Both the position numbers and the translations under genes were made by a program. This document shows, piece by piece, positions 51,458-62,499 of a stretch of 64,000 nt of DNA. The DNA is from Conexibacter arvalis (GTDB lineage: Bacteria > Actinomycetota > Thermoleophilia > Solirubrobacterales > Solirubrobacteraceae), in NCBI RefSeq assembly GCF_014199525.1, contig NZ_JACHNU010000005.1, forward strand, positions 186,001 through 250,000, written 5' to 3'. The stretch's first letter is position 1, and every line of letters starts with the position of its first letter. A model generated the notes under the pieces. That model worked only from the letters and a program-made list of their open reading frames with translations, did not search any database and was not told where the DNA came from.

Positions 51458-51499
51458 CGTTCAGCGGATGAACGGAAAGCGGGCCGACCGGCCCATTGG
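51458..51499 (+). promoter_or_regulatory. Shared bipartite promoter motif, copy 1
   Basis: CGTTCA-N5-TGAACG (51458-51474), then 14 bases, then CGGCCCATTGG (51489-51499). The same arrangement recurs at 54723 and 59733. It lies between glmS and the secreted-protein gene, 35 bases before the proposed GTG of the latter. Confidence 0.65.
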
Positions 51500-51533
51500 C
51501 GACGCGGCGGCGATCTCGCAAGATGGCCTCCTC

Positions 51534-52499
51534 GTGATTCGGCGTAGGGGAACGTGCGCGGTCGATCGGGGGCGTCGCCGTCGCGCTCGCCTCCGCGCGG
51601 CCGCCGCGGTGGCGCTTGCCTGCGGAAGCGCGGCAGGGGCCCTCGCGCCCGCGGCCGTCGCCGAGGAGCCGCCGCTTCCCGGGCCGCCGCCCGGCGCCGG
51701 CGCCGGCTTCCCGCTGCCGCCGGCGTCGGGACCGATGGCGCCGACGCCGCCGGCCGGTCCGCCCGGCTCGATCGCGCCGGCGTCCGGGCGGCCGGCGCTC
51801 GCCGACGGCTCCGGCCGGGTGAGCGCCGGCGGGCGGCTGACGCTGCGGATCGCCTGCCGGGCGAGCGGTCAGGCGCGGCTCGACGTGACCGCGCTCGGAT
51901 CGGCGCCGCTCGCGCGGGCGAGATACCGCTGCCGCGGCGGACGCGCCGCCGCGCAGCTGCGGCTGGCGCGCGCCGTCGTGCCGCGGCTCGCGCGGCTGAG
52001 CCCCGCGGTCGGCCGCGTGACGCTGCAGGAGCGGGGCGCCGCCGCGCGCGTCTCGGTCGCGCTCGGCGCCGCCGGGCGCTCGACCTCGCCGGGCTTCTGG
52101 AGCGACGGCGGCCTCCAGTGCGCCTCGCCGGGACCGCGCCAGACCTACCTCGTCGGGCCGAACTTCACCGTCTCGCCGGCGACGTCGATCTCCGTCCGGC
52201 CGTGGATCGCGACCTACACCTCCGCTGGCGGCTGGCGCTGGCTGGGGCTGAACGGCGGCGCGAGCCGCTGGCTGCAGCTGACCGCCACCCCGGCCGGCGT
52301 CGCCCAGTGGCTCCAGCCGACCGGCGCGCTGAACCCGTGGACGTGGGGCCCGATCACCGCCCCGCCGAGCGGGAGCGTGTCGGCGATCGGCCTGTTCGAG
52401 GTGATCTACTGGTACGGCGGGCGGCCGACCTACGTCTGGAAGTACACCCACTCGTTCGTCGGCTCCCAGCCGGCCGGGGCGTTCTGCGCGTTCCCGTGA
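51534..52499 (+). CDS. Secreted protein of unknown function
   Basis: About 321 residues with an Arg-rich N-terminus and signal peptide (LRAAAAVALACGSAAGALAP, AAVAEEP cleavage region), a Pro-rich linker, a middle region of beta type (about 110-190), and a Trp/Tyr-rich C-terminal domain (WYGGRPTYVWKYTHSFVG). No family recognised. I chose the GTG at 51534, the first start after the shared promoter motif; the frame is open upstream to 51291. Co-regulation with the PelF and deacetylase genes suggests a matrix or export component. Confidence 0.6.
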   Translation: MIRRRGTCAVDRGRRRRARLRAAAAVALACGSAAGALAPAAVAEEPPLPGPPPGAGAGFPLPPASGPMAPTPPAGPPGSIAPASGRPALADGSGRVSAGGRLTLRIACRASGQARLDVTALGSAPLARARYRCRGGRAAAQLRLARAVVPRLARLSPAVGRVTLQERGAAARVSVALGAAGRSTSPGFWSDGGLQCASPGPRQTYLVGPNFTVSPATSISVRPWIATYTSAGGWRWLGLNGGASRWLQLTATPAGVAQWLQPTGALNPWTWGPITAPPSGSVSAIGLFEVIYWYGGRPTYVWKYTHSFVGSQPAGAFCAFP

Positions 52500-52511
52500 G
52501 CGGGCTCGGAT

Positions 52512-53156
52512 TCACAGCAGCTCGTCGCGGACCGCGCGCACGGCCGCCTGGATGCGGTTGGCGACGTGGAGCTTGGCGAGGATGCTCGAGATGTGGTTCT
52601 TGACCGTGTGCGGGCTGATGTAGAGGCGCTGGCCGATCGCGGCGTTGTCGGCGCCGTCGGCGACCAGCCGCAGCACCTCCCGCTCGCGCGGCGACAGGCG
52701 GGCGTCGCAGTGGGCGTCGGCCGGGCGGCTGCTGGCGCGCATCCGCGCCAGCAGCGTGGCGGCGACGCGCGGCGAGAGGATCGCCTCGCCGGCGCAGACC
52801 GCGCGGACGCCCCCGACGATCGTCTCGACAGAGGCGTCCTTCAGGAGATAGCCGCGGCTGCCGGCGAGCACCGCGTCGGTGAGGTCCTCCTCGGCCTCGG
52901 AGACGGTCAGGACGAGGACGGCGGTCGCCGGCGCGTCGTCGGCCAGCCGCCGGATCGCGTCGATGCCCGACCCGTCCGGCAGGCTGAGGTCGACGATCGC
53001 GACGTCCGGGGCGTGGCGCTCGACCTGCTCGACGCCGCTCGCGACGGTCGGCGCCTCGCCGACGACCGCGATCCCGTGCTCCTCCAGCAGCTCCCGCAGC
53101 CCGGCGCGGAAGAGCGTGTGGTCCTCGATCAGCACCGTCGTGATCGGCCGGCTCAC
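52512..53156 (-). CDS. NarL/LuxR-type response regulator
   Basis: A 214-residue regulator. The receiver has E11/D12, phospho-acceptor D56 (IVDLSLPD) and K near 105; the C-terminal LuxR HTH reads LSPREREVLRLVADGADNAA then IGQRLYISPHTVKNHISSIL. Its ATG overlaps the stop of a second regulator. With the kinase upstream it forms a three-gene system that likely controls the nearby exopolysaccharide promoters. Confidence 0.92.
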   Translation of the reverse strand: MSRPITTVLIEDHTLFRAGLRELLEEHGIAVVGEAPTVASGVEQVERHAPDVAIVDLSLPDGSGIDAIRRLADDAPATAVLVLTVSEAEEDLTDAVLAGSRGYLLKDASVETIVGGVRAVCAGEAILSPRVAATLLARMRASSRPADAHCDARLSPREREVLRLVADGADNAAIGQRLYISPHTVKNHISSILAKLHVANRIQAAVRAVRDELL

Positions 53157-53806
53157 GGCGGCGAGGCCTCCCGCGTCAGCCGCAGCGCCGCGTCGCGGTC
53201 GCCGACGCCGAGCCGGTGGGCGGTCGCGGAGACGTGCCGGCGGACGGTCACGGGGGAGAGGCCGAGCCGGTCGGCGACCTGCTTGGTCGTGAGCCCGCGG
53301 CGCAGCAGCTCCAGCACCGAGGCCTCGCGCGGCGACAGCGTCACGACGGCGCCGTCGGCCGCCCGCACCCGGCGCGCGCCGCTGCGCGTCTGCAGCTCCT
53401 CGACGATCCGCGCCGTCAGCTCGCTCGACAGCGGCGCCTCGCCGTGGACCGCGCCGTGGACGGCGCGGACCAGCTCATCGGGCCCGATGTCCTTCAGCAG
53501 GTAGCCGATCGCGCCGGCGCGCAGCGCCGCGATCAGCTCGTCGTCGGCCCGTCTGGCGGCGAGCATGATCACGCGCGTGCGCGGAGCCGCGGCGGCGATC
53601 GCGGCGACCGCCGCGAGCGCGCCGCCCGGCAGGCCGACGTCGAGCAGGCAGACGTCGACCTGGCACTGGCGCGCGCAGGCGAGCGCGCCGGCGGCGTCGC
53701 TCGCCTCGACGACGCTGGTGATGCCGTCGCGCTCCAGCGCCATCCGGATGCCGAGCCGCGTGATCGGCTGGCGCTCCGCCAGCAGAACCCGCAGCGGGTC
53801 GCTCAC
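53153..53806 (-). CDS. NarL/LuxR-type response regulator with atypical acidic pocket
   Basis: A 217-residue regulator with D56 (LLDVGLPG) and a LuxR HTH (LSPREASVLELLRRGLTTKQ, VADRLGLSPVTVRRHVSATA). The metal-binding acidic pair, normally two acids after the first strand, reads LLAERQP: the second acid is Arg. Phosphorylation may therefore be weak or regulation non-canonical. GTG start at 53806 overlaps the kinase stop. Confidence 0.88.
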   Translation of the reverse strand: MSDPLRVLLAERQPITRLGIRMALERDGITSVVEASDAAGALACARQCQVDVCLLDVGLPGGALAAVAAIAAAAPRTRVIMLAARRADDELIAALRAGAIGYLLKDIGPDELVRAVHGAVHGEAPLSSELTARIVEELQTRSGARRVRAADGAVVTLSPREASVLELLRRGLTTKQVADRLGLSPVTVRRHVSATAHRLGVGDRDAALRLTREASPP

Positions 53807-54519
53807 GGCAGGCTCACCGCCACTTCGGTCCCCCTTCCGGGGGCGGAGACGACGCTGAAGCTGCCGCCGAGCAGCTCGGCGCGCTCGCGCATCGACAGGA
53901 TGCCCCAGCCGTGCGACCCCGCGGCCGCCGCGGAGGCGAAGCCGGCGCCGTCGTCGGCGACGCTCAGCGCGACGCGGTCGTCGCGCGCGTGGACGTGGAC
54001 GCGCACGCGCCGGGCGGCGCCGTGGTCGGCGGCGTTGGCGAGCGCCTGGCCAAGGATGCGCAGGACCGCGATCCGCCGGTCGCGGTCGACGTCGCAGGAG
54101 AGCTCGAGGCGCAGGTCGACGGCGACGCCCGAGCGCGACTCGAACGAGCTGACCTCCTCCTCCAGCAGCTGCGAGAGCGGCAGCTCGCGCGCGGCCCGCA
54201 GCTCGTCGATCGTCAGGCGCGCCTCCCGCAGCGCGCGGCGCGCGGCGGCGCGCAGCTCGAGCAGCGCGCGCTCGTCGTCGGCCCGCGACGGGAGCCGGTC
54301 GAGCTGGAAGACGATGAACGCCAGCTCCTGCGCGACGCCGTCGTGGACGTCGCGCGCGATCTCGCGCCGCTGCTCGGCGAGCGCGGCCGCGACCGGGTCG
54401 CGGCGGCGCCGGCGCGCGGCGCGTGTCGGCGGCGGGCGCCGCCTTCGTGTCGGTCGCCGATCGTCGGGGCGACTCCCCTGCGCATGTCGGGCCCGACCGC
54501 CTAGCAGTCGTCTTGCCAT
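53803..54519 (-). CDS. Soluble histidine kinase (HisKA_3/NarX type)
   Basis: A 238-residue kinase with no membrane helix or sensor domain. A basic Arg-rich N-terminus leads to the HisKA_3 helix with phospho-acceptor H59 (IARDVHDGVAQELAFIVFQL) and a HATPase_c domain with ALANAADHG (N box), DDGAGF and GSHGWGILSMRERAELLGGS. A kinase of this type may take its input from a partner protein. ATG at 54519 chosen; the frame is open to 54654. It is followed by two overlapping response-regulator genes. Confidence 0.87.
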   Translation of the reverse strand: MARRLLGGRARHAQGSRPDDRRPTRRRRPPPTRAARRRRRDPVAAALAEQRREIARDVHDGVAQELAFIVFQLDRLPSRADDERALLELRAAARRALREARLTIDELRAARELPLSQLLEEEVSSFESRSGVAVDLRLELSCDVDRDRRIAVLRILGQALANAADHGAARRVRVHVHARDDRVALSVADDGAGFASAAAAGSHGWGILSMRERAELLGGSFSVVSAPGRGTEVAVSLP

Positions 54520-54722
54520 GACTCGAGATCCCTCGACCTCCGCCGTGAGGTCTGGTCGCGGACAGCAGATTCGGTGGCCGGCAACCTGCCGAGCCACCGT
54601 AGCGCGCGCCCCGCGCCCGCTGGAAGCGCGCTCCGGCATCGTCACGCGATCCATACGAAGGTGGGCTGCGATGGCCCAAACTGCCCCGTCGATTTGGCCG
54701 TCGCGGCCAGTCCCCGGCGGGC

Positions 54723-54764
54723 CGTTCAGCGGCTGAACGCGAGATGGGACACGCGGCCCATTGG
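54723..54764 (+). promoter_or_regulatory. Shared bipartite promoter motif, copy 2
   Basis: CGTTCA-N5-TGAACG (54723-54739), 14 bases, CGGCCCATTGG (54754-54764), 84 bases before the coiled-coil/PelF operon start. The spacing is identical to copy 1. The 328-bp gap 54520-54847 also holds the start region of the divergent kinase gene; I see nothing else in it. Confidence 0.7.
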
Positions 54765-54847
54765 ACCTTCCGGTGCGACCGTCGACACTGGGCGCTCGAC
54801 CGATGAGCGGACTTCATCGAGTCCTCCACCGGAGGTGACGCCGAACC

Positions 54848-55276
54848 ATGGAAGCCAGGAGGGTCGACGCGAGCGGGGCCGGCGCCCCCGCTCAGGCTCC
54901 GACGCGGTCGCGACGCGGCCGGTGGCTGCGCGGCGGAGGCGGCGGCGCCGATCTCGTCGAGCAGCTGGAGGCCGAGGTCGCGCTCCTGCGCGAGGAGAAC
55001 GCGCGTCTGGAGATCCGCGCCGCGCGCGCCGGCGAGGCGCGGTCGTGGGAGGAGCGGATCCGCGACCTCGTCCCCCGCGGCGAGCAGGTCGCGGCGACCG
55101 ACGACCAGTCGTGGGAGCTGCTGACCGAATGCCAGCTGCTGCGCGCCGCGCTCGTCGACGCCTGCCGCGAGGTCGAGGCGGCGATGGCGCAGATCCGCGG
55201 CCGGCTGGAAGCGCTCGCCGCGCCGACGCCGTTGGAGACCGCGGCGGACGAGCGCACCGACGAGGGCGCGCCGTGA
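54848..55276 (+). CDS. Small coiled-coil protein preceding the PelF-like gene
   Basis: A 142-residue soluble protein with a Gly/Arg linker and a leucine-zipper-like coiled coil (LVEQLEAEVALLREENARLE), followed by a second helical region (LLRAALVDACREVEAAMAQI). GGAGG occurs 13 bases before the ATG. It overlaps the glycosyltransferase gene (GTGA). It may scaffold the polymerase complex; no family recognised. Confidence 0.65.
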   Translation: MEARRVDASGAGAPAQAPTRSRRGRWLRGGGGGADLVEQLEAEVALLREENARLEIRAARAGEARSWEERIRDLVPRGEQVAATDDQSWELLTECQLLRAALVDACREVEAAMAQIRGRLEALAAPTPLETAADERTDEGAP

Positions 55277-56808
55277 CGGCGACCGCGTCGCTGCAGGAGC
55301 GGGCGCAGACCGCGGTCCTCGACGCGACCGCCGGCGCGGCGCGCGCGCCGGTCGTCCGCCGGACGCGCGCGCCCCGCGTCCTGATGACGACCGAGGGCAC
55401 CTACCCGTTCGCGGTCGGCGGGGTCAGCTCCTGGTGCCATGTCGTGGTCGGCGGCCTGCCCGAGTTCACGTGGCGGATCCTCCCCATCCACGCGGGCGGC
55501 CGCCGACCCGTTCAGCTGTTCGAGCTGGCGCCCCATGTCGCGCTGGCGGGCCGGATCGAGGTCTGGTCCGAGCAGATGCCGCCGCGGCGCTGGAACTCCG
55601 GCCGGCGCCGCGGCGCGCGCCCGGGGCTGCCGGCCGAGCTCGCCCGCACGCTGATCGGCTGGCGCCGCGACGACGCGCTGCTGCTCGACGCGCTCGCGTG
55701 GTGCCGCGCCCACCCCGACATGCTGCGGCCGACCTTCCGCTCGATCGACGCGTGGGACCGGTTCGTCGCCGAGCTGGAGCGGGTCGTCGCCGAGCGCCAC
55801 CCGGACATCGCGCCGCCGCCCGAGCTGGACGCCGTCGACGCCGCGACGCTCTACCAGCAGCTCTACTGGGTGGCGCGCACCGCAGCGGTGCGGACGCCGC
55901 CCGCCGACGTGCTGCACGTGACCGCGGCCGGATGGGCCGCGATCCCCGCGCTCGTCGACCGCCACGTCGCGGGCACGCCGCTGCTGCTGACCGAGCACGG
56001 CGTCTACGTGCGGGAGGCGTACCTCGCCGCCGCGCGCGGCGGCGCCAGCGCCGGCGAGCGCTTCCTCTCGACCCGCCTCGCCCGCGGCCTCAGCCTCGCC
56101 ACCTACGCGGCCGCCGACGTGATCGCGCCGGTGACGGAGGCGAACGCGGCGTGGGAGGTCGGGCTCGGGGTCGACCCGCGCAAGGTCTGCGTGATCCACA
56201 ACGGCATCCCCGCGCCGCGCGCCTTCATCTCGTCGCCGGGGCGCAGGAAGGTCGTCTCGATCGGCCGCATCGACCCGCTCAAGGACGTCCAGACGATGCT
56301 CCGCGTCGCGGCCGAGGTCGGCCGGCGGATGACGGACGTCCAGTTCGAGTACTGGGGGGCTCCGACCGCCGGCCAGGAGGCGTACGCGGCAGCGTGCGAG
56401 CGGCTGCGCGTACGGCTCGGGCTGGACGGCCGCTTCCGCTTCATGGGTCAGACCAGCACGCCCGACGAGGTGCTGCGCGAGGCCGACGTCGTGCTGCTGA
56501 CGAGCATCTCCGAGGGGATGCCGATGGCGGTGCTCGAGGCGATGGCGCAGGGGCGCGCCGTCGTCGCCACCGGCGTCGGCGGCGTGCCGGACGTGCTGCA
56601 CGGCTGCGGGATCATCGCCTCCTCCGGCGACGTCGAGGCGCTCGCGAGCGGCGTCGTCATGCTGCTCGGCGACCGCGAGTTCGCGGGCCGGATGGGCCGC
56701 CGCGCCTTCGATCGCGTCTGCGGCGAGTACACCCAGGCGCTCTGCCTCGACCGCTACCGCGCGCTGATCGGCCAGCTGCTCGACGAGGCCTCCGAGGCGC
56801 GCCGATGA
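55273..56808 (+). CDS. pelF: GT4 glycosyltransferase, PelF-like
   Basis: A 511-residue cytosolic glycosyltransferase. The DUF3492-type N-terminus reads LMTTEGTYPFAVGGVSSWCH then VVVGGLPEFTWRILPI, matching the PelF subgroup. The GT4 half has SIGRIDPLKDVQTMLRVAAE, a Rossmann donor site and the E-x7-E motif in SISEGMPMAVLEAMA. PelF is the polymerase for the GalNAc-rich Pel exopolysaccharide using UDP-sugars. GTG start overlaps the coiled-coil gene; it overlaps the membrane-protein gene below. The symbol is a homology suggestion. Confidence 0.82.
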   Translation: MTATASLQERAQTAVLDATAGAARAPVVRRTRAPRVLMTTEGTYPFAVGGVSSWCHVVVGGLPEFTWRILPIHAGGRRPVQLFELAPHVALAGRIEVWSEQMPPRRWNSGRRRGARPGLPAELARTLIGWRRDDALLLDALAWCRAHPDMLRPTFRSIDAWDRFVAELERVVAERHPDIAPPPELDAVDAATLYQQLYWVARTAAVRTPPADVLHVTAAGWAAIPALVDRHVAGTPLLLTEHGVYVREAYLAAARGGASAGERFLSTRLARGLSLATYAAADVIAPVTEANAAWEVGLGVDPRKVCVIHNGIPAPRAFISSPGRRKVVSIGRIDPLKDVQTMLRVAAEVGRRMTDVQFEYWGAPTAGQEAYAAACERLRVRLGLDGRFRFMGQTSTPDEVLREADVVLLTSISEGMPMAVLEAMAQGRAVVATGVGGVPDVLHGCGIIASSGDVEALASGVVMLLGDREFAGRMGRRAFDRVCGEYTQALCLDRYRALIGQLLDEASEARR

Positions 56809-58118
56809 GCGTCGAGCCCGGCACCGACGGCGCCGGCGCGGTCGTCCGGGCGCGGCTGGGCCGCACGCCGCAGGACATGCTGGAGGCGGCCGTCGTGCTG
56901 GAGGCGTGGGGCGGGATGTCGGCCGAGACGGCGCTGCGGCTCGGCCCGCGCGTCGTGCTGCCGGCGCTGCGCTCCTCCGACCCGCGGCGGTGGCGCCCGA
57001 CCTCGGCCGAGGGCCGCAAGTCGGTCGTCGCCGAGGGCGTCGGCCTGCTGACCGCGATCCTCGCGATCGCCGCGTGGGCGGGACCGCTCAGCGCGGCGAT
57101 CGGCGACCCCGCCTTCGAGCTGGCGCTGCGGATCGCGCTGCCGGTGACGCTCGCGCTCCAGTGGGCGATCCGCAGCCGCTACCTGAGCCGGCGCGCCGGC
57201 CTCGTCTGCCTGAAGGAGGACTGGTTCGCCTTCGTGCTCGCCGTGACCGTGGTGGAGGCGTGCGTGATCGCCGTGCCGACCGCCGGCCCGGTCGCGGCGA
57301 TGCTCGTCGGGGTGTGGGCAGGGGGGACGCTGCTCACGCGGCGCGGCTGGGGGCCGGCCTACGCCGCGCTGCTGATCGCCGCGACGATCGGGCTGATCTG
57401 CGGGCTGCCCGCGATCGGCTCGCTGGCCGTCCTCACCGCGGCGACGGTCGCGACCGGCGCCGCCGCCGTCGCGACCGCGCCCGGGTTCGCGCTCGCGCCG
57501 CCCGGGCGGGTCGGCCGCGCGCTGGCGGCCGGCCTGATCGGCGCGCTGCTGGGGATGCTGCTGATCAGCGATCCGACGCTCGGCTGGGGGATCCACGGCG
57601 CCTTCCCGGCGCTGGCGCTCGTCCCGTCGGTCGTCGGCAGCTTCTGGGGCGGCTACCACCTGTGGCGCTTCCACGACGAGGTCCCGCGCGGGCTGCGCGG
57701 CGTCGAGCTGTCGCGCGCGAGCGCCTCGATGCTGCGCGGGCCGGCGACCGAGCTGGTGCTGGCGGCGCTGTTCCGCCTGATCGGGATCACGGTCGTGCTG
57801 TCGCTGCTGGTGCTGGCGATATCGAGCTGGACCTCGGGGACCGACGACGTCAGCCTCTTCGTCGCCTTCGGCTGCGCGGCGCTCGTCTGCATGTTCGTCA
57901 GCCTGCTGGAGTCGCTCGGCTACGTCCGGTGGGCGCTCTTCTCGGCCGCCACGAGCCTCGTCGTCGAGCTGCTCGTCAGCGCGTCGCTGGGCGCGCCGCT
58001 CGCCGGCGCCGGGCTGATCGCCGGCGGGACGGTCGGCACGCTGCTGGCGCTGGCGCCGCTGGTCGGCGTGCTGCGCTTCCCCGGCCGCATGCTCGCGACG
58101 GCGCTGTGGATCCAGTGA
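56805..58118 (+). CDS. Polytopic membrane protein, PelG-like
   Basis: A 437-residue protein. The cytoplasmic N-terminus of about 80 residues (MLEAAVVLEAWGGMSAETAL) precedes about 12 hydrophobic helices from residue 83 on. PelG, the transporter partner of PelF, is a MOP-type polytopic protein, and position directly after PelF supports that role. Sequence likeness is weak by eye: helices such as GFALAPPGRVGRALAAGLIG and an FHDEVPRGLRGVELSRASAS loop are not diagnostic. It could also be a MATE-like flippase of another subgroup. Confidence 0.6.
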   Translation: MSVEPGTDGAGAVVRARLGRTPQDMLEAAVVLEAWGGMSAETALRLGPRVVLPALRSSDPRRWRPTSAEGRKSVVAEGVGLLTAILAIAAWAGPLSAAIGDPAFELALRIALPVTLALQWAIRSRYLSRRAGLVCLKEDWFAFVLAVTVVEACVIAVPTAGPVAAMLVGVWAGGTLLTRRGWGPAYAALLIAATIGLICGLPAIGSLAVLTAATVATGAAAVATAPGFALAPPGRVGRALAAGLIGALLGMLLISDPTLGWGIHGAFPALALVPSVVGSFWGGYHLWRFHDEVPRGLRGVELSRASASMLRGPATELVLAALFRLIGITVVLSLLVLAISSWTSGTDDVSLFVAFGCAALVCMFVSLLESLGYVRWALFSAATSLVVELLVSASLGAPLAGAGLIAGGTVGTLLALAPLVGVLRFPGRMLATALWIQ

Positions 58119-58130
58119 CGCGGCTCGATC

Positions 58131-58859
58131 TCAGCAGGTCCGACGCCAGGCGCCGAGGTCGAGCCGCTTGCGGATCGCGTTGATCCCCAGCCGGCGCGCC
58201 TCGGCGCAGAAGCGCGCGGGCGGGAGCGCGTACTCGGCGTCGAAGACGGCCTTGCCGGCGCGCAGGAACGGCCGCGTCCGCTCGCACTCGCGGTACTGGA
58301 AGCACTGCTCGACGATCGCGAAGTCGAAGCTCGGCTGCAGCGCCCGCGCCTGCTCGAGGTCGTTCTTGAGCGCGACCGCGAGGCCGAAGCGGTGGGCCGT
58401 GCGCGCCAGCCAGCGGTTGAAGGCGAGCTGGTCGCGCGCCGTGAGCGGGAAGCCGGTGTCGTTGGTCCAGCCGTCGACGTTGTCGGGCTCGACGGCGTCG
58501 AAGCCCTTGCGCGCGCACATCGCGATCCGCGCCCGCAGGACCGGCGCCAGCTGGCGCAGGCGGCGCACGTCGAGCCAGCGCTCGCCCGGCCAGCCGTTGC
58601 CCTTGCCGAGCGTCGCGGCCGGGAAGCGGTCGCGGTCGGGCCGCCAGCGCTCCCACGCTCCGGCGCTGATGTAGCAGACGACGTAGCGCCCGTCGCGGTG
58701 CAGCCGCGCGACCTCGGCGGCGCTCGTCTCGAAGCCGTCGACGTCGTAGACCCGGGCGGAGACCGAGCGGTCGATCGGCCCCTGCAGCTGCCATTGCCAG
58801 GTCGCGTCCGCGGGCGGCCGCACGACGAGCGCCGCGAGCACGAGCGCGATCAGCGCCAC
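58131..58859 (-). CDS. GH114 endo-alpha-1,4-polygalactosaminidase-like hydrolase
   Basis: A 242-residue TIM-barrel hydrolase with an N-terminal membrane or signal segment (VALIALVLAALVV). GH114 markers are YVVCYISAGAWERWRPDRD, MCARKGFDAVEPDNVDGW (likely catalytic acids) and FAIVEQCFQYRECE. Fungal Ega3 and the PelA hydrolase domain of this type cut GalN/GalNAc polymers. GTG start at 58859 overlaps the preceding gene by 10 bases. Its presence beside PelF/PelG-like genes points to an alpha-1,4-GalNAc polymer. Confidence 0.85.
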   Translation of the reverse strand: MALIALVLAALVVRPPADATWQWQLQGPIDRSVSARVYDVDGFETSAAEVARLHRDGRYVVCYISAGAWERWRPDRDRFPAATLGKGNGWPGERWLDVRRLRQLAPVLRARIAMCARKGFDAVEPDNVDGWTNDTGFPLTARDQLAFNRWLARTAHRFGLAVALKNDLEQARALQPSFDFAIVEQCFQYRECERTRPFLRAGKAVFDAEYALPPARFCAEARRLGINAIRKRLDLGAWRRTC

Positions 58860-59677
58860 GTCTCGCTCCGGACCGGTTCGGCGAGGTGGGGCGGACGGTC
58901 GAGCTCGAGCACGCTGACGGCGGGGTGGAAGCCCTCCGCCAGCGAGCGCTGAGCGGCCTCGGCGGCGCCGGGCGAGCCGGGCGCGGCGTAGTCGAGCGTG
59001 AAGACCGGGAGGCCGCGGTCGCGCAGCCGCCGCAGGCCGGCGAGCAGCGCCGCGGTCTCCGCGGGCGGGGAGGCGACGTAGCCATCCTCCCACCGCCAGA
59101 AGACGTCCTCGTGGGCGATGCCGTCGATCGGCAGCCGGTCGGCGACGGCGAGGCCGTTCTGCGCGACCAGCAGCAGCGACGGCGCGGCCGCGCGCAGCGC
59201 CGCGACCAGCTCGACGAGCGCGTCGGCGAGCGGCGGGTGGTCCTCGGCGACGTCGAGGTTGTCGAGGTAGAGGCCGTCGAACCCGGCCGCCGCGAGCGCG
59301 GCGGCCTGCTCCGCCATCAGCGTGCGCCAACCCGGCGCGCGCACGTCGGCGTAGCGCTCGTCCGGCCAGTCGGGGACCGGCTCCAGCTGCCAGGCGGCCG
59401 GCACGCGCGGTGCGTACGGGCGCCACGCCTCGACCGTCCCGACCGAGAGGTAGGAGAGCACGAGCGTGTCCGGCACGAGCCGCGCGAGCGCCGCGGCGAC
59501 GCGCCGGCGGTCGCCGCCGCGCTCGCCGACGCCGTCGATCACGACCAGGTCGTAGCCGGAGAGGTCGCAGGCGTCCGGCTCCGCGCCGAGGACCGGAGCC
59601 CAGCGCCGGGCGGCGCGCAGCGCCTGCGCGCGCCGCGCGCGGGCGTCGTCGCCCGCGGCCGGATGGTTCGCGCTCAT
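58850..59677 (-). CDS. TM1410/GH114-like glycoside hydrolase
   Basis: A 275-residue hydrolase-like barrel protein: LSYLSVGTVEAWRPYAP, then DVRAPGWRTLMAEQ, AAGFDGLYLDNLDVAEDHPP (acidic pair) and VFTLDYAAPGSPGAAEAAQR. It is a second, divergent member of the GH114 clan, without a clear signal peptide. GGAGG lies 7 bases before the ATG at 59677. It shares the intergenic region carrying motif copy 3 with the divergent deacetylase, so both may respond to it. Confidence 0.8.
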   Translation of the reverse strand: MSANHPAAGDDARARRAQALRAARRWAPVLGAEPDACDLSGYDLVVIDGVGERGGDRRRVAAALARLVPDTLVLSYLSVGTVEAWRPYAPRVPAAWQLEPVPDWPDERYADVRAPGWRTLMAEQAAALAAAGFDGLYLDNLDVAEDHPPLADALVELVAALRAAAPSLLLVAQNGLAVADRLPIDGIAHEDVFWRWEDGYVASPPAETAALLAGLRRLRDRGLPVFTLDYAAPGSPGAAEAAQRSLAEGFHPAVSVLELDRPPHLAEPVRSETWR

Positions 59678-59732
59678 CTGCACCTCCAGGTCGGCAGTGC
59701 CGAGCGAACCGACGGTAACACAGCGATCGCGG

Positions 59733-59791
59733 CGTTCAATCGGATGAACGCACAATCCGCCACGCGGCCCATTGGGACACGCGGCCGTTTG
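59733..59791. promoter_or_regulatory. Shared bipartite promoter motif, copy 3
   Basis: CGTTCA-N6-TGAACG (59733-59750), 14 bases, CGGCCCATTGG (59765-59775), then a second related box CGGCCGTTTGG (59781-59791). It lies between the divergent GH114-like gene and the deacetylase gene. Confidence 0.7.
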
Positions 59792-59832
59792 GTCGAGACT
59801 GCGGACGTCCCCGATCGAAGGAGCGGAGGGAC

Positions 59833-62499
59833 ATGTGGACGAAGACGCTCGCGCTCGCCGTCAGCGCGTTGACGATCGCCGGCACGCTGGCGCTGACCGC
59901 CTCCCCGGCGACCGCGGCGGCGCAGCGGATCGACATGCGGGTGCTCCTGCTCGGCGCGACCGGCGGCGAGCCTTCGTTCACGGCCTGGCAGGCGCAGCTG
60001 CGGCGCGAGGGCGTCCCCTTCGACGCGCTCGTCGCGAGACCGGGCCACGCGCCGATCACGGCGTCGACCCTGTCGAGCACGCTCGCCGACGGCACCCAGG
60101 AGGCGAAGTACCAGGCGGTGATCGTCGCGGTCGGCGGCCTGCCGATCTGCGACGCCAACGGCGCCAACTGCACCTCCGCACTGTCGACCGAGGAGTGGGG
60201 CGCGCTGCAGGCCTACGAGCAGGCCTTCCACGTCCGCCAGCTGACGGCGTACGCCTTCCCGAGCGCCGCGTACGGCCTCAACGCCCCGACCTTCTCCGGC
60301 GAGATGGGCGGGCAGGTCGGGAACCTCACCGCCCGCGGCGCGCAGCTGTTCCCGTACCTGAGAGGGCCGGTCACGATCGCCGCGGGCGCCTTCGGCCACC
60401 AGGCGACCCCGCTCGCCGGGGCGAGATTCGAGACGGCGCTCGCCGGGCCGAACGGCTCGGCGCTCGTCGGCGTGCTGAACCATCCCGACGGCCGCGAGGA
60501 GATGGTCCAGACCTTCGATGGGAACCAGTTCCAGCTCCACTCGTGGCTGCTGCGCCACGGTCAGCTGGAGTGGGTCACGCGCGGCACCTACCTCGGCCTG
60601 CAGCGGAACTTCCTCGAGCTCCAGATCGACGACGTCTTCCTGCCCGACGACAGCTGGGAGATCGCGACCAACCAGACCAACTACGACCCCGCCGCCGCGA
60701 TCCGCATGACGGCGGCCGACGTGACCCGCCTGTCGAACTGGACCAGCGCGACCGGCATCCGCATGGACATGGTCTTCAACGGCGGCGGCAGCATCGCGGA
60801 GGCGGCCGCGCGCGGCTCGGATCCGCTCCTGCCGGCCTTCCAGGCGGTCAAGAACCGGTTCGGCTGGATCAACCACACGCTCGACCACCCGAACCTCGAC
60901 TGCTCGACCCGGCCGTTCATCGCCAACCAGATCGCCGCCAACACAAGCTGGGCGCAGCAGAACGGCCTGCCCGTCAACCCGGCCGAGCTGGTCACCGGCG
61001 AGCACTCCGGCCTCGCCAACCTCGTGCCGGGCAACCCGGGCACGATCGACCCGCCGTTCCTCGACGAGGCGACGCCGGCGGCGACCGGCGGCACGCTCGC
61101 CGCCGGCAGCTACGACTACAGCGTCACGGCGCTGTCGAGAAACGGCGAGAGCACCGGCTCGACGACGACGGTGACGACGACCGGCGCGACCGGCTCGGTC
61201 GCGCTCTCGTGGGAGGCGATCTGCCACGCGGTCTCCTACCGCGTCTACCGTCGCCCCTCGCCGGCGGGTCCGTGGACGCTGGTGGGGTCGCTGCCGCAGC
61301 CGGCGGGCGCCTTCACCGACGCCGGCCCGATCGCGATCTCCTTCACCGACACCGGCGGCGCCGGCAGCGGCGGCGCGCCGCCGGCTGCCAACGGCGCCCG
61401 GATCGACCCGTACGGCGGGAACCCGGCCTTCGTCGCGGCGCTCGGCGACACCGGCGTCACCTCGATCGCGAGCGACGCCTCCAAGCCGTACCCGCAGGAC
61501 CCCAGCGCCACCTCCGGTCCGCAGTGGCCGGCCGGCGCCTCGTTCCTCGCCGGGCCGGCGCGCGCGGTCCCGCGCTATCCGACCAACGTCTACTACAACG
61601 TCGCGACCGAGGCGCAGCTGCTCGACGAGTTCAACTACCTCTACCTGCCGCCGTCGCTCGGCGGCGCCTGCGTGAACACGGCGGTCACGACCTGCCTGAC
61701 GCAGCCGGCGACCTGGGATGACGTCCGCAACGGCGAGGCATCCCGGATCTTCGGCCACATGATGGGCAACGACCCGCGGCCGCACTACTTCCACCAGAGC
61801 AACATCGCGCGGACGGCCGAGCCCGGCGGCGGGGTGCTCTACCCGATCGTCGACGCCGTGCTCGCCGACTACGCCAGATACTTCGCGGCCAACGCCCCGA
61901 TCGTGCAGCTGTCGCACGCCGGCATCGCCGACCTGATCGCGCGCCAGGACGCGTGGGGGGCCGCCGGCGCCGGCCAGGTCCGCGGCTACATCGAGGGCGA
62001 CAGGGTCACGATCGTCAACAGCGGCGGAAGCGCCGTCTCGCTGCCGCTGAGCGGCACCGAGGTCGGCGAGGCCTACGGCGGGACCCGCTCGGGGTGGGCG
62101 AGCGCTCCGCCCGGCACGAGCGCCCACGTCGCCGTGGCGCCGTGGCCGGGCACGCCGGTCAGCCCGCCCGTGACCCCGCCGGTCACGCCGCCCGTGACGC
62201 CGCCGACGACGACGCCGCCCGGGAGCGGAGGCCCTTCGGCGCCGCCGCCGGTCGTCGTCCCGCCGGCGGCCAGAGCACCGGTCTCGCTCGGCAGAGCCGC
62301 GCCGAGAAGAGCCGTCAAGAAGAAGAAGGCGAGCGCCAAGAAGAAGTGCGTCAAGCGCCGCCGCGTCGTGCGCGGGCCGAGAGGGAGACGGCGGGTCGTG
62401 ACGGTGCGCGTCTGCCGGCCGCGCCACCCCGGGCACACGGGCAAGGGGAGACGCCCGGGCGCCAAGGGCAGACGTCCGGCCGCCGGCCCGCGGCGTTGA
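59833..62499 (+). CDS. Secreted Agd3/PelA-like (CE18) polysaccharide deacetylase with Fn3 domain
   Basis: An 888-residue secreted protein with signal peptide (MWTKTLALAVSALTIAGTLA, cleavage near TAAA). An N-terminal Rossmann-like/CBM region (about 35-255) precedes a deacetylase domain with LELQIDDVFLPDDSW (D266/D267), NHTLDHPNLD (H348, H352) and GEHSGL (H391), the metal pattern of Agd3/PelA-type enzymes. A fibronectin-III-like domain (about 410-515) is inserted before the rest of the domain. The tail has a VTPP repeat and a very basic Lys/Arg region (about 830-888), suited to binding an anionic surface. It should deacetylate a GalNAc polymer outside the cell. Confidence 0.75.
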   Translation: MWTKTLALAVSALTIAGTLALTASPATAAAQRIDMRVLLLGATGGEPSFTAWQAQLRREGVPFDALVARPGHAPITASTLSSTLADGTQEAKYQAVIVAVGGLPICDANGANCTSALSTEEWGALQAYEQAFHVRQLTAYAFPSAAYGLNAPTFSGEMGGQVGNLTARGAQLFPYLRGPVTIAAGAFGHQATPLAGARFETALAGPNGSALVGVLNHPDGREEMVQTFDGNQFQLHSWLLRHGQLEWVTRGTYLGLQRNFLELQIDDVFLPDDSWEIATNQTNYDPAAAIRMTAADVTRLSNWTSATGIRMDMVFNGGGSIAEAAARGSDPLLPAFQAVKNRFGWINHTLDHPNLDCSTRPFIANQIAANTSWAQQNGLPVNPAELVTGEHSGLANLVPGNPGTIDPPFLDEATPAATGGTLAAGSYDYSVTALSRNGESTGSTTTVTTTGATGSVALSWEAICHAVSYRVYRRPSPAGPWTLVGSLPQPAGAFTDAGPIAISFTDTGGAGSGGAPPAANGARIDPYGGNPAFVAALGDTGVTSIASDASKPYPQDPSATSGPQWPAGASFLAGPARAVPRYPTNVYYNVATEAQLLDEFNYLYLPPSLGGACVNTAVTTCLTQPATWDDVRNGEASRIFGHMMGNDPRPHYFHQSNIARTAEPGGGVLYPIVDAVLADYARYFAANAPIVQLSHAGIADLIARQDAWGAAGAGQVRGYIEGDRVTIVNSGGSAVSLPLSGTEVGEAYGGTRSGWASAPPGTSAHVAVAPWPGTPVSPPVTPPVTPPVTPPTTTPPGSGGPSAPPPVVVPPAARAPVSLGRAAPRRAVKKKKASAKKKCVKRRRVVRGPRGRRRVVTVRVCRPRHPGHTGKGRRPGAKGRRPAAGPRR

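What the first reader, a model, noticed from the sequence alone, without database searches (positions are those of the whole stretch)
51458..59791. Three promoters share a bipartite motif: a local regulon
CGTTCA-N5/6-TGAACG, exactly 14 bases, then CGGCCCATTGG occurs at 51458, 54723 and 59733, upstream of the secreted protein, the PelF operon and the deacetylase. The strict spacing implies either an activator palindrome next to a polymerase site or the -35/-10 of an alternative sigma. NarL-type regulators encoded in the middle of the cluster (52512-53806) are natural candidates.
Basis: seen in the sequence. Interest (0 to 1): 0.7.

Follow-up and report, generated by a model that had tools for sequence, protein, structure and literature searches.

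The report
Two-operator promoters controlling polysaccharide-coat genes
Three neighbouring genes or operons in a soil actinobacterium (Conexibacter), which look set up to make and modify a sticky sugar coat, share one unusually precise on-switch: two mirror-image DNA signs and an ordinary promoter at fixed distances, which most likely is thrown by the pair of response-regulator proteins encoded between them.

Summary
CGTTCA-N5/6-TGAACG, 14 bases, CGGCCCATTGG lies at 51458, 54723 and 59733. The palindrome occurs nowhere else in the 5.2-Mb genome. An exact long form of the motif has 9 hits in 84,980 species: 8 in actinobacterial (mostly Thermoleophilia) contigs and one probable chance hit. Comparing 27 sites shows the box is not a separate polymerase signal. 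It carries the -35 TTG of an ordinary promoter, followed by exactly 17 bases and a -10 NANNNT (24/27 sites; 0-4 at any other offset). The box is also the right arm of a second dyad, ATGGGCC-N4-GGCCCAT, centred near -43.5. The GTTCA/TGAAC dyad is centred near -65, about two helical turns upstream. The alternative-sigma reading is not supported; the activator-operator reading is. Sites accompany a module of one HisKA_3 kinase and two NarL-type regulators, one with an invariant VTVRRH recognition helix and a degenerate receiver. Pel/Agd3 loci without close orthologues of these regulators lack sites. Best explanation: the linked two-component system activates these promoters through tandem operators, as DevR/DosR does, controlling a Pel/GAG-like exopolysaccharide locus. 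No binding or expression has been measured.

The parts
51458..51474 (+). distal dyad CGTTCA-N5-TGAACG, site 1 (before the secreted-protein gene)
51479..51496 (+). proximal dyad, site 1 (-52 to -35); right arm GGCCCAT
51496..51524 (+). predicted promoter, site 1: -35 TTGGCG, 17-base spacer, -10 CAAGAT (51519-51524)
   Evidence: congeners have CATCAT and CAAGAT at the same register
51534..52499 (+). secreted-protein gene (no Pfam or NCBIfam match); start GTG 51534 inferred from congener alignment
52512..53156 (-). RR1: NarL-type response regulator, canonical receiver, recognition helix PHTVKNHIS
53153..53803 (-). RR2: NarL-type response regulator, degenerate receiver, recognition helix VTVRRH invariant among orthologues
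53803..54654 (-). histidine kinase (HisKA_3 + HATPase_c), no sensor domain detected
54723..54739 (+). distal dyad, site 2 (before coiled-coil-PelF-PelG operon)
54744..54761 (+). proximal dyad, site 2 (ATGGGACACGCGGCCCAT)
54761..54789 (+). predicted promoter, site 2: -35 TTGGAC, 17-base spacer, -10 GACACT (54784-54789)
   Evidence: GACACT also in both congeners
54848..55276 (+). small protein with apparent coiled coil, first gene of the pelF operon
   Evidence: coiled coil is by inspection only
55273..56808 (+). PelF glycosyltransferase (DUF3492 + GT4)
   Evidence: NCBIfam PelF equivalog above cutoff
56805..58118 (+). PelG-like membrane protein (by synteny and hydrophobicity only; no family match)
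58131..58850 (-). GH114 hydrolase b (start approximate)
   Evidence: PF03537 E 1.9e-83
58850..59677 (-). GH114 hydrolase a, divergent from Agd3
   Evidence: PF03537 E 2.2e-21; start
59712..59739 (-). predicted divergent promoter of GH114a: -35 TTGAAC inside the distal dyad, 16-base spacer, extended -10 TGTTACCGT
   Evidence: TGT-TANNNT conserved in 3 of 3 Conexibacter genomes
59733..59750 (+). distal dyad, site 3 (before Agd3-like deacetylase)
59755..59772 (+). proximal dyad, site 3 (left arm degenerate)
59772..59800 (+). predicted promoter, site 3: -35 TTGGGA, 17-base spacer, -10 GAGACT (59795-59800)
   Evidence: GAGACT also in both congeners
59833..62499 (+). Agd3-like secreted polysaccharide deacetylase (CBM87 + CE18)
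   Evidence: PF25115 and PF25116

Best explanation
The motif is the operator-promoter of a small, cluster-restricted regulon. Each site is an activator-dependent, housekeeping-sigma-type promoter (-35 TTG, 17 bases, -10 NANNNT usually lacking the first T). It has two dyad operators on one helical face: GTTCA-N5/6-TGAAC centred near -65, and ATGGGCC-N4-GGCCCAT centred near -43.5 and overlapping -35. The linked two-component system (HisKA_3 kinase plus NarL-type RR1 and RR2) most likely binds these dyads cooperatively and recruits RNA polymerase, switching on pelF/pelG, the Agd3-like deacetylase and a secreted protein together. At the third site the distal dyad also contains the -35 of the divergent GH114 hydrolase promoter, so binding would probably repress that hydrolase while activating the deacetylase. 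Shown by sequence: site uniqueness, conservation, dyads, -35/-10 register, co-occurrence with the regulators. Inferred: binding by RR1/RR2, which regulator takes which dyad, activation rather than repression, and reciprocal control.
For: Uniqueness: the only 3 copies in 5.2 Mb, all in this cluster. Conservation at the same three genes in two congeners and, despite rearranged gene order, before PelF, Agd3 and the coiled-coil gene in another genus. -10 register: 24/27 sites against 0-4 at other offsets, although -10 was not used to pick sites. Second dyad: 70% of cells complementary at one register against at most 40% elsewhere; its left arm was not used to pick sites. Regulator link: RR1 and RR2 orthologues with conserved helices in the f1-family site-bearing loci that are long enough. 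Among RR2-like loci, VTVRRH-helix loci outside the training set carry near-sites in 6 of 12 against 0 of 13 without that helix, Fisher one-sided p = 0.005. Of 8 site-bearing genomes not used to build the RR2 profile, 6 are in the best 43 of 394 by RR2 score, hypergeometric p = 3e-5. Ten Pel/Agd3 stretches (170 kb) without close RR1/RR2 orthologues have no site. DevR precedent: cooperative sites with the proximal one overlapping -35 (PMC3029386).
Against: No binding, footprint, start-site or expression data. Several site-bearing loci in another family (L096-L099) lie by Tad-pilus genes and a different kinase without RR1/RR2 beside them; two of those genomes have an RR2-like protein with VTVRTH, not VTVRRH. 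Six of 12 independent VTVRRH loci show no near-site within about 1.5 kb. The distal dyad loop varies from 4 to 7 bases, unusual for a rigid dimer site. RR-to-site pairing is statistical; closely related genomes are not independent.
Confidence: 0.75

Rival explanations
1. The conserved box and -10 are the recognition site of an alternative sigma factor, with the palindrome as an upstream activator or UP-like element.
For: GGCCCATTG is more conserved than a usual -35, and -10 lacks the canonical first T.
Against: -11 A (25/27) and -7 T (24/27), TTG at -35 and a 17-base spacer are the housekeeping pattern; the box is explained as the right arm of a dyad; no sigma gene was recognised in the loci examined, though no dedicated search was made.
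Confidence: 0.08
2. The sites are bound by another, unlinked transcription factor conserved in Thermoleophilia, and the two-component system sits beside them because it is itself a target or passenger.
For: Some sites (L096-L099, L101) have no RR1/RR2 beside them; in genus g19 a site precedes another NarL-type regulator.
Against: Presence of sites tracks the RR2 recognition helix across genera; two regulators and two dyads match in number; NarL-type proteins bind such dyads.
Confidence: 0.14
3. The palindrome acts as an RNA hairpin (riboswitch or leader element).
For: Inverted repeat with a loop of variable length.
Against: It lies upstream of the conserved promoter and so would not be in the transcript; no Rfam match in the window apart from a tRNA elsewhere.
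Confidence: 0.02

Closest known systems
DevR/DosR regulon of Mycobacterium tuberculosis (NarL-family regulator, tandem Dev boxes)
   Same: NarL-type regulator with HisKA_3-type kinase; two closely packed dyads; proximal one overlaps -35; the proximal dyad has GGG-N8-CCC spacing, as the Dev box does (Dev box consensus from memory; overlap and cooperativity from PMC3029386)
   Different: Two different dyad sequences instead of two copies of one; two co-encoded regulators, one with a degenerate receiver; regulon is exopolysaccharide, not dormancy
RcsB with auxiliary LuxR-type partners (RcsB-BglJ and similar)
   Same: A phosphorylatable NarL-type regulator with a paralogue that has a non-canonical receiver; heterodimer possible (from memory)
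   Different: No evidence of heterodimers here; the auxiliary genes are unlinked in Rcs
Gram-positive pelDEADAFG locus of Bacillus cereus (PMC7112168) and bacterial agd3 operons (PMC7229062)
   Same: PelF, membrane partner, separate deacetylase and hydrolase genes; a divergent hydrolase gene flanks the operon in bacilli too
   Different: No PelD/PelE recognised here; deacetylase is Agd3/CE18-type; control appears to be by a two-component system
MadR-family response regulator (NCBIfam NF047785)
   Same: Best NCBIfam match of RR1 (163.6 bits)
   Different: Below the curated cutoff of 300; not a member by that test

Membership tests
Housekeeping-sigma (sigma-70 group) promoter | -35 TTG-like and -10 with A at -11 and T at -7, spacer 16-18 | tested here: met
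   17-base register in 24/27 sites
Housekeeping-sigma (sigma-70 group) promoter | transcription starts about 7 bases after -10 | not testable with these tools
   needs start-site mapping
NarL/FixJ-family response regulators (RR1, RR2) | receiver plus GerE/LuxR HTH | tested here: met
   PF00072 and PF00196 for both
NarL/FixJ-family response regulators (RR1, RR2) | complete receiver active site | tested here: inconclusive
   RR1 canonical; RR2 has Ala at the Thr/Ser position and in genus g25 lacks the phospho-Asp (read by eye)
DevR/DosR-type tandem-operator regulon | two adjacent dyads, proximal overlapping -35 | tested here: met
   centres near -65 and -43.5
DevR/DosR-type tandem-operator regulon | both dyads are copies of one consensus bound by one regulator | tested here: not met
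   the two dyads have different consensus sequences; so 'works like', not 'is'
Pel exopolysaccharide locus | PelF glycosyltransferase | tested here: met
   NF038011, 148.9 bits over a cutoff of 100
Pel exopolysaccharide locus | PelG membrane protein | tested here: inconclusive
   neighbouring hydrophobic 437-aa protein without family match
Pel exopolysaccharide locus | PelD/PelE | tested here: inconclusive
   no domain match in the small protein before PelF; rest of genome not searched
Agd3 / CE18 deacetylases | CE18 catalytic domain and CBM87 | tested here: met
   PF25115 and PF25116 above gathering score

The most novel reading that the evidence does not exclude
A two-regulator, two-operator code: RR1 (phosphorylatable) and RR2 (degenerate receiver) each read a different dyad, or bind as a heteromer, so that the promoter fires only when both are placed. 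The same event shuts the divergent hydrolase promoter by covering its -35, giving reciprocal control of polysaccharide maturation and breakdown.
Probability: 0.35. Interest if true: 0.65.

Novelty: new variant of a known kind. Interest (0 to 1): 0.5.

Why it matters
It gives a first, directly testable regulatory logic for Pel/GAG-like exopolysaccharide genes in Thermoleophilia, a soil lineage with little experimental work, and a clean natural case of two paralogous NarL-type regulators with distinct conserved recognition helices found together with two distinct operators. The consensus can be used to predict targets in other Thermoleophilia.

Tried and rejected
Alternative-sigma reading: rejected on the -10 register and the dyad explanation. 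RNA element: no Rfam match and wrong side of the promoter. Relaxed motif with 2-3 mismatches to enlarge the regulon in the own genome: the extra hits have 2-3 mismatches and are unconvincing. Assigning a regulator to each dyad from recognition residues: ambiguous, because TVKNH in RR1 resembles DosR (from memory) while Arg-Arg in RR2 could also read G-rich arms. No description of these sites was found in the papers library, which lacks most subscription journals. The second, degenerate CGGCCGTTTGG copy at 59782 is not conserved in congeners and was dropped.

Full report
Check of the observation. The three motif copies are exactly as described. Each is CGTTCA, 5 or 6 bases, TGAACG, 14 bases, CGGCCCATTGG, on the + strand. 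With mismatches neither half exceeds chance in the window, but the exact composite does. In the whole genome (5.2 Mb, 18 contigs) the palindrome with a 4-7 base loop occurs only at these three places. The box alone occurs a fourth time without a palindrome. With up to 3 mismatches the own genome gives no convincing further site.

Distribution. Two same-genus genomes (G003, G004) keep the sites at the same three genes, with the first site degenerate in G004. A looser pattern (GTTCA-N4..7-TGAAC-N17,18-CCCATT) matched 13 of 232 genomes of the order and 13 of 399 sampled from the class. The reversed control gave none in either set. A stricter pattern over 84,980 named species gave 9 contigs: eight from Solirubrobacterales, Thermoleophilia or unnamed Actinobacteria assemblies, one of them Conexibacter sp. 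CPCC 206217, and one Pollutimonas, taken as chance.

Anatomy. I aligned 27 sites with a good box on the right arm of the palindrome. Downstream, at one register only, stands NANNNT: 24 of 27 sites, against 0-4 at any other offset from -15 to +11. The A at -11 (25/27), A at -9 (20/27) and T at -7 (24/27) are conserved. It lies exactly 17 bases after the TTGNNN hexamer at the end of the box. The -10 was not used to choose sites. The box is thus the -35 region of a normal promoter. Upstream of the box, positions -52 to -46 have the consensus ATGGGCC, the mirror of GGCCCAT at -41 to -35. Complementarity is 70% at that register and at most 40% at others. So there are two dyads: distal, centred near -65, and proximal, centred near -43.5, about 21.5 bp apart, i.e. 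on the same face of the helix.

Neighbourhood. The cluster holds glmS, a secreted protein, RR1, RR2, a HisKA_3 kinase, a small protein, PelF, a PelG-like membrane protein, two GH114 hydrolases, and an Agd3-like deacetylase. PelF passes the NCBIfam equivalog cutoff. Agd3 (CE18) is the galactosaminogalactan deacetylase of Aspergillus, with bacterial homologues in exopolysaccharide operons (PMC7229062). Gram-positive Pel loci are described in PMC7112168. The product is thus probably a Pel/GAG-like galactosamine polymer (inference).

Same genes, different order. In genus g25 the gene order differs, yet sites stand before PelF, Agd3 and the small coiled-coil gene. Elsewhere sites stand before a Wzz/BY-kinase-like gene (L079), a large secreted protein (L075), and a kinase gene in Tad-pilus clusters (L096, L097, L099) (the Tad assignment is by reading the sequences), all consistent with surface structures.

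Who binds. In the window's family, every site-bearing locus with enough sequence around the cluster has orthologues of both RR1 and RR2; the Tad-type loci of another family do not. RR2 orthologues share an invariant recognition helix VTVRRH and a receiver that is degenerate in many of them. An RR2 profile run over 399 genomes of the class ranked site-bearing genomes near the top: leaving out genomes used for the profile, 6 of 8 fall in the best 43 of 394 (p = 3e-5). Among the best 30 RR2-like loci, those with VTVRRH and not used for training have a near-site in 6 of 12, those without in 0 of 13 (p = 0.005). Five of these six genomes (congeners G001 and G006, and G111, G113 and G147) and G149 had been missed by the exact pattern; the regulators predicted their near-sites, five of the six of which have NANNNT at the right place. 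Ten Pel/Agd3 stretches without close RR1/RR2 orthologues (170 kb) have none. The relatedness of genomes inflates these p-values.

Mechanism. By analogy to DevR, where closely packed sites with the proximal one overlapping -35 are bound cooperatively (PMC3029386), the two-component system most likely activates these promoters. Which regulator reads which dyad is open. In the Agd3-GH114 intergenic region the opposite strand carries TTGAAC (GTGAAC in G003), 15-16 bases, and an extended -10 TGTTANNNT, conserved in three of three Conexibacter genomes, with its -35 inside the distal dyad. Binding there should hinder hydrolase transcription. This is inference from sequence.

Judgement. A real, conserved regulatory module of a known general kind, in a variant with two different operators and two co-encoded regulators. 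It is not an alternative-sigma promoter set, and across the class it is not restricted to polysaccharide genes.

Noticed in passing
window 53153-53803 and orthologues in L035, L036, L039, L077: RR2 receivers are degenerate: Thr/Ser replaced by Ala in Conexibacter, phospho-Asp lost in genus g25, suggesting a phosphorylation-independent partner.
   Followed up: partly
window 53803-54654: The kinase has no recognised sensor or membrane domain, whereas the longer kinases in L072, L073 and L100 have extended N-termini with apparent membrane segments.
   Followed up: no
L096, L097, L099: The same operator-promoter stands before a roughly 510-aa histidine kinase at the end of Tad-pilus-like gene clusters; L097 has a second copy (position 2408) with -10 GACACT.
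   Followed up: partly
L072 6779-7105, L073 1201-1584, L118 2230-2547: Small genes (about 105-130 aa; the L072 one has no Pfam match) lie beside RR1/RR2 and directly behind a site or near-site; possible conserved member of the module.
   Followed up: no
window about 54643-54660 (- strand), L015 and L016 equivalents: GTATGGATCGCGT is conserved on the kinase side of the intergenic region in three genomes at differing distances from the palindrome; start codon or -10 of the kinase operon.
   Followed up: no
window 51519-51536: The predicted start of transcription at site 1 is about 3 bases before the GTG, so the secreted-protein mRNA may be nearly leaderless.
   Followed up: no
L035 13345-15084 and 16683-19268; L036: Two Agd3-like genes per locus in genus g25, one of them matched in two pieces.
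   Followed up: no
G149 contig C391 around 10216 and 11472: A second RR2-like gene with a near-site about 1.2 kb away, suggesting a second copy of the module in that genome.
   Followed up: no
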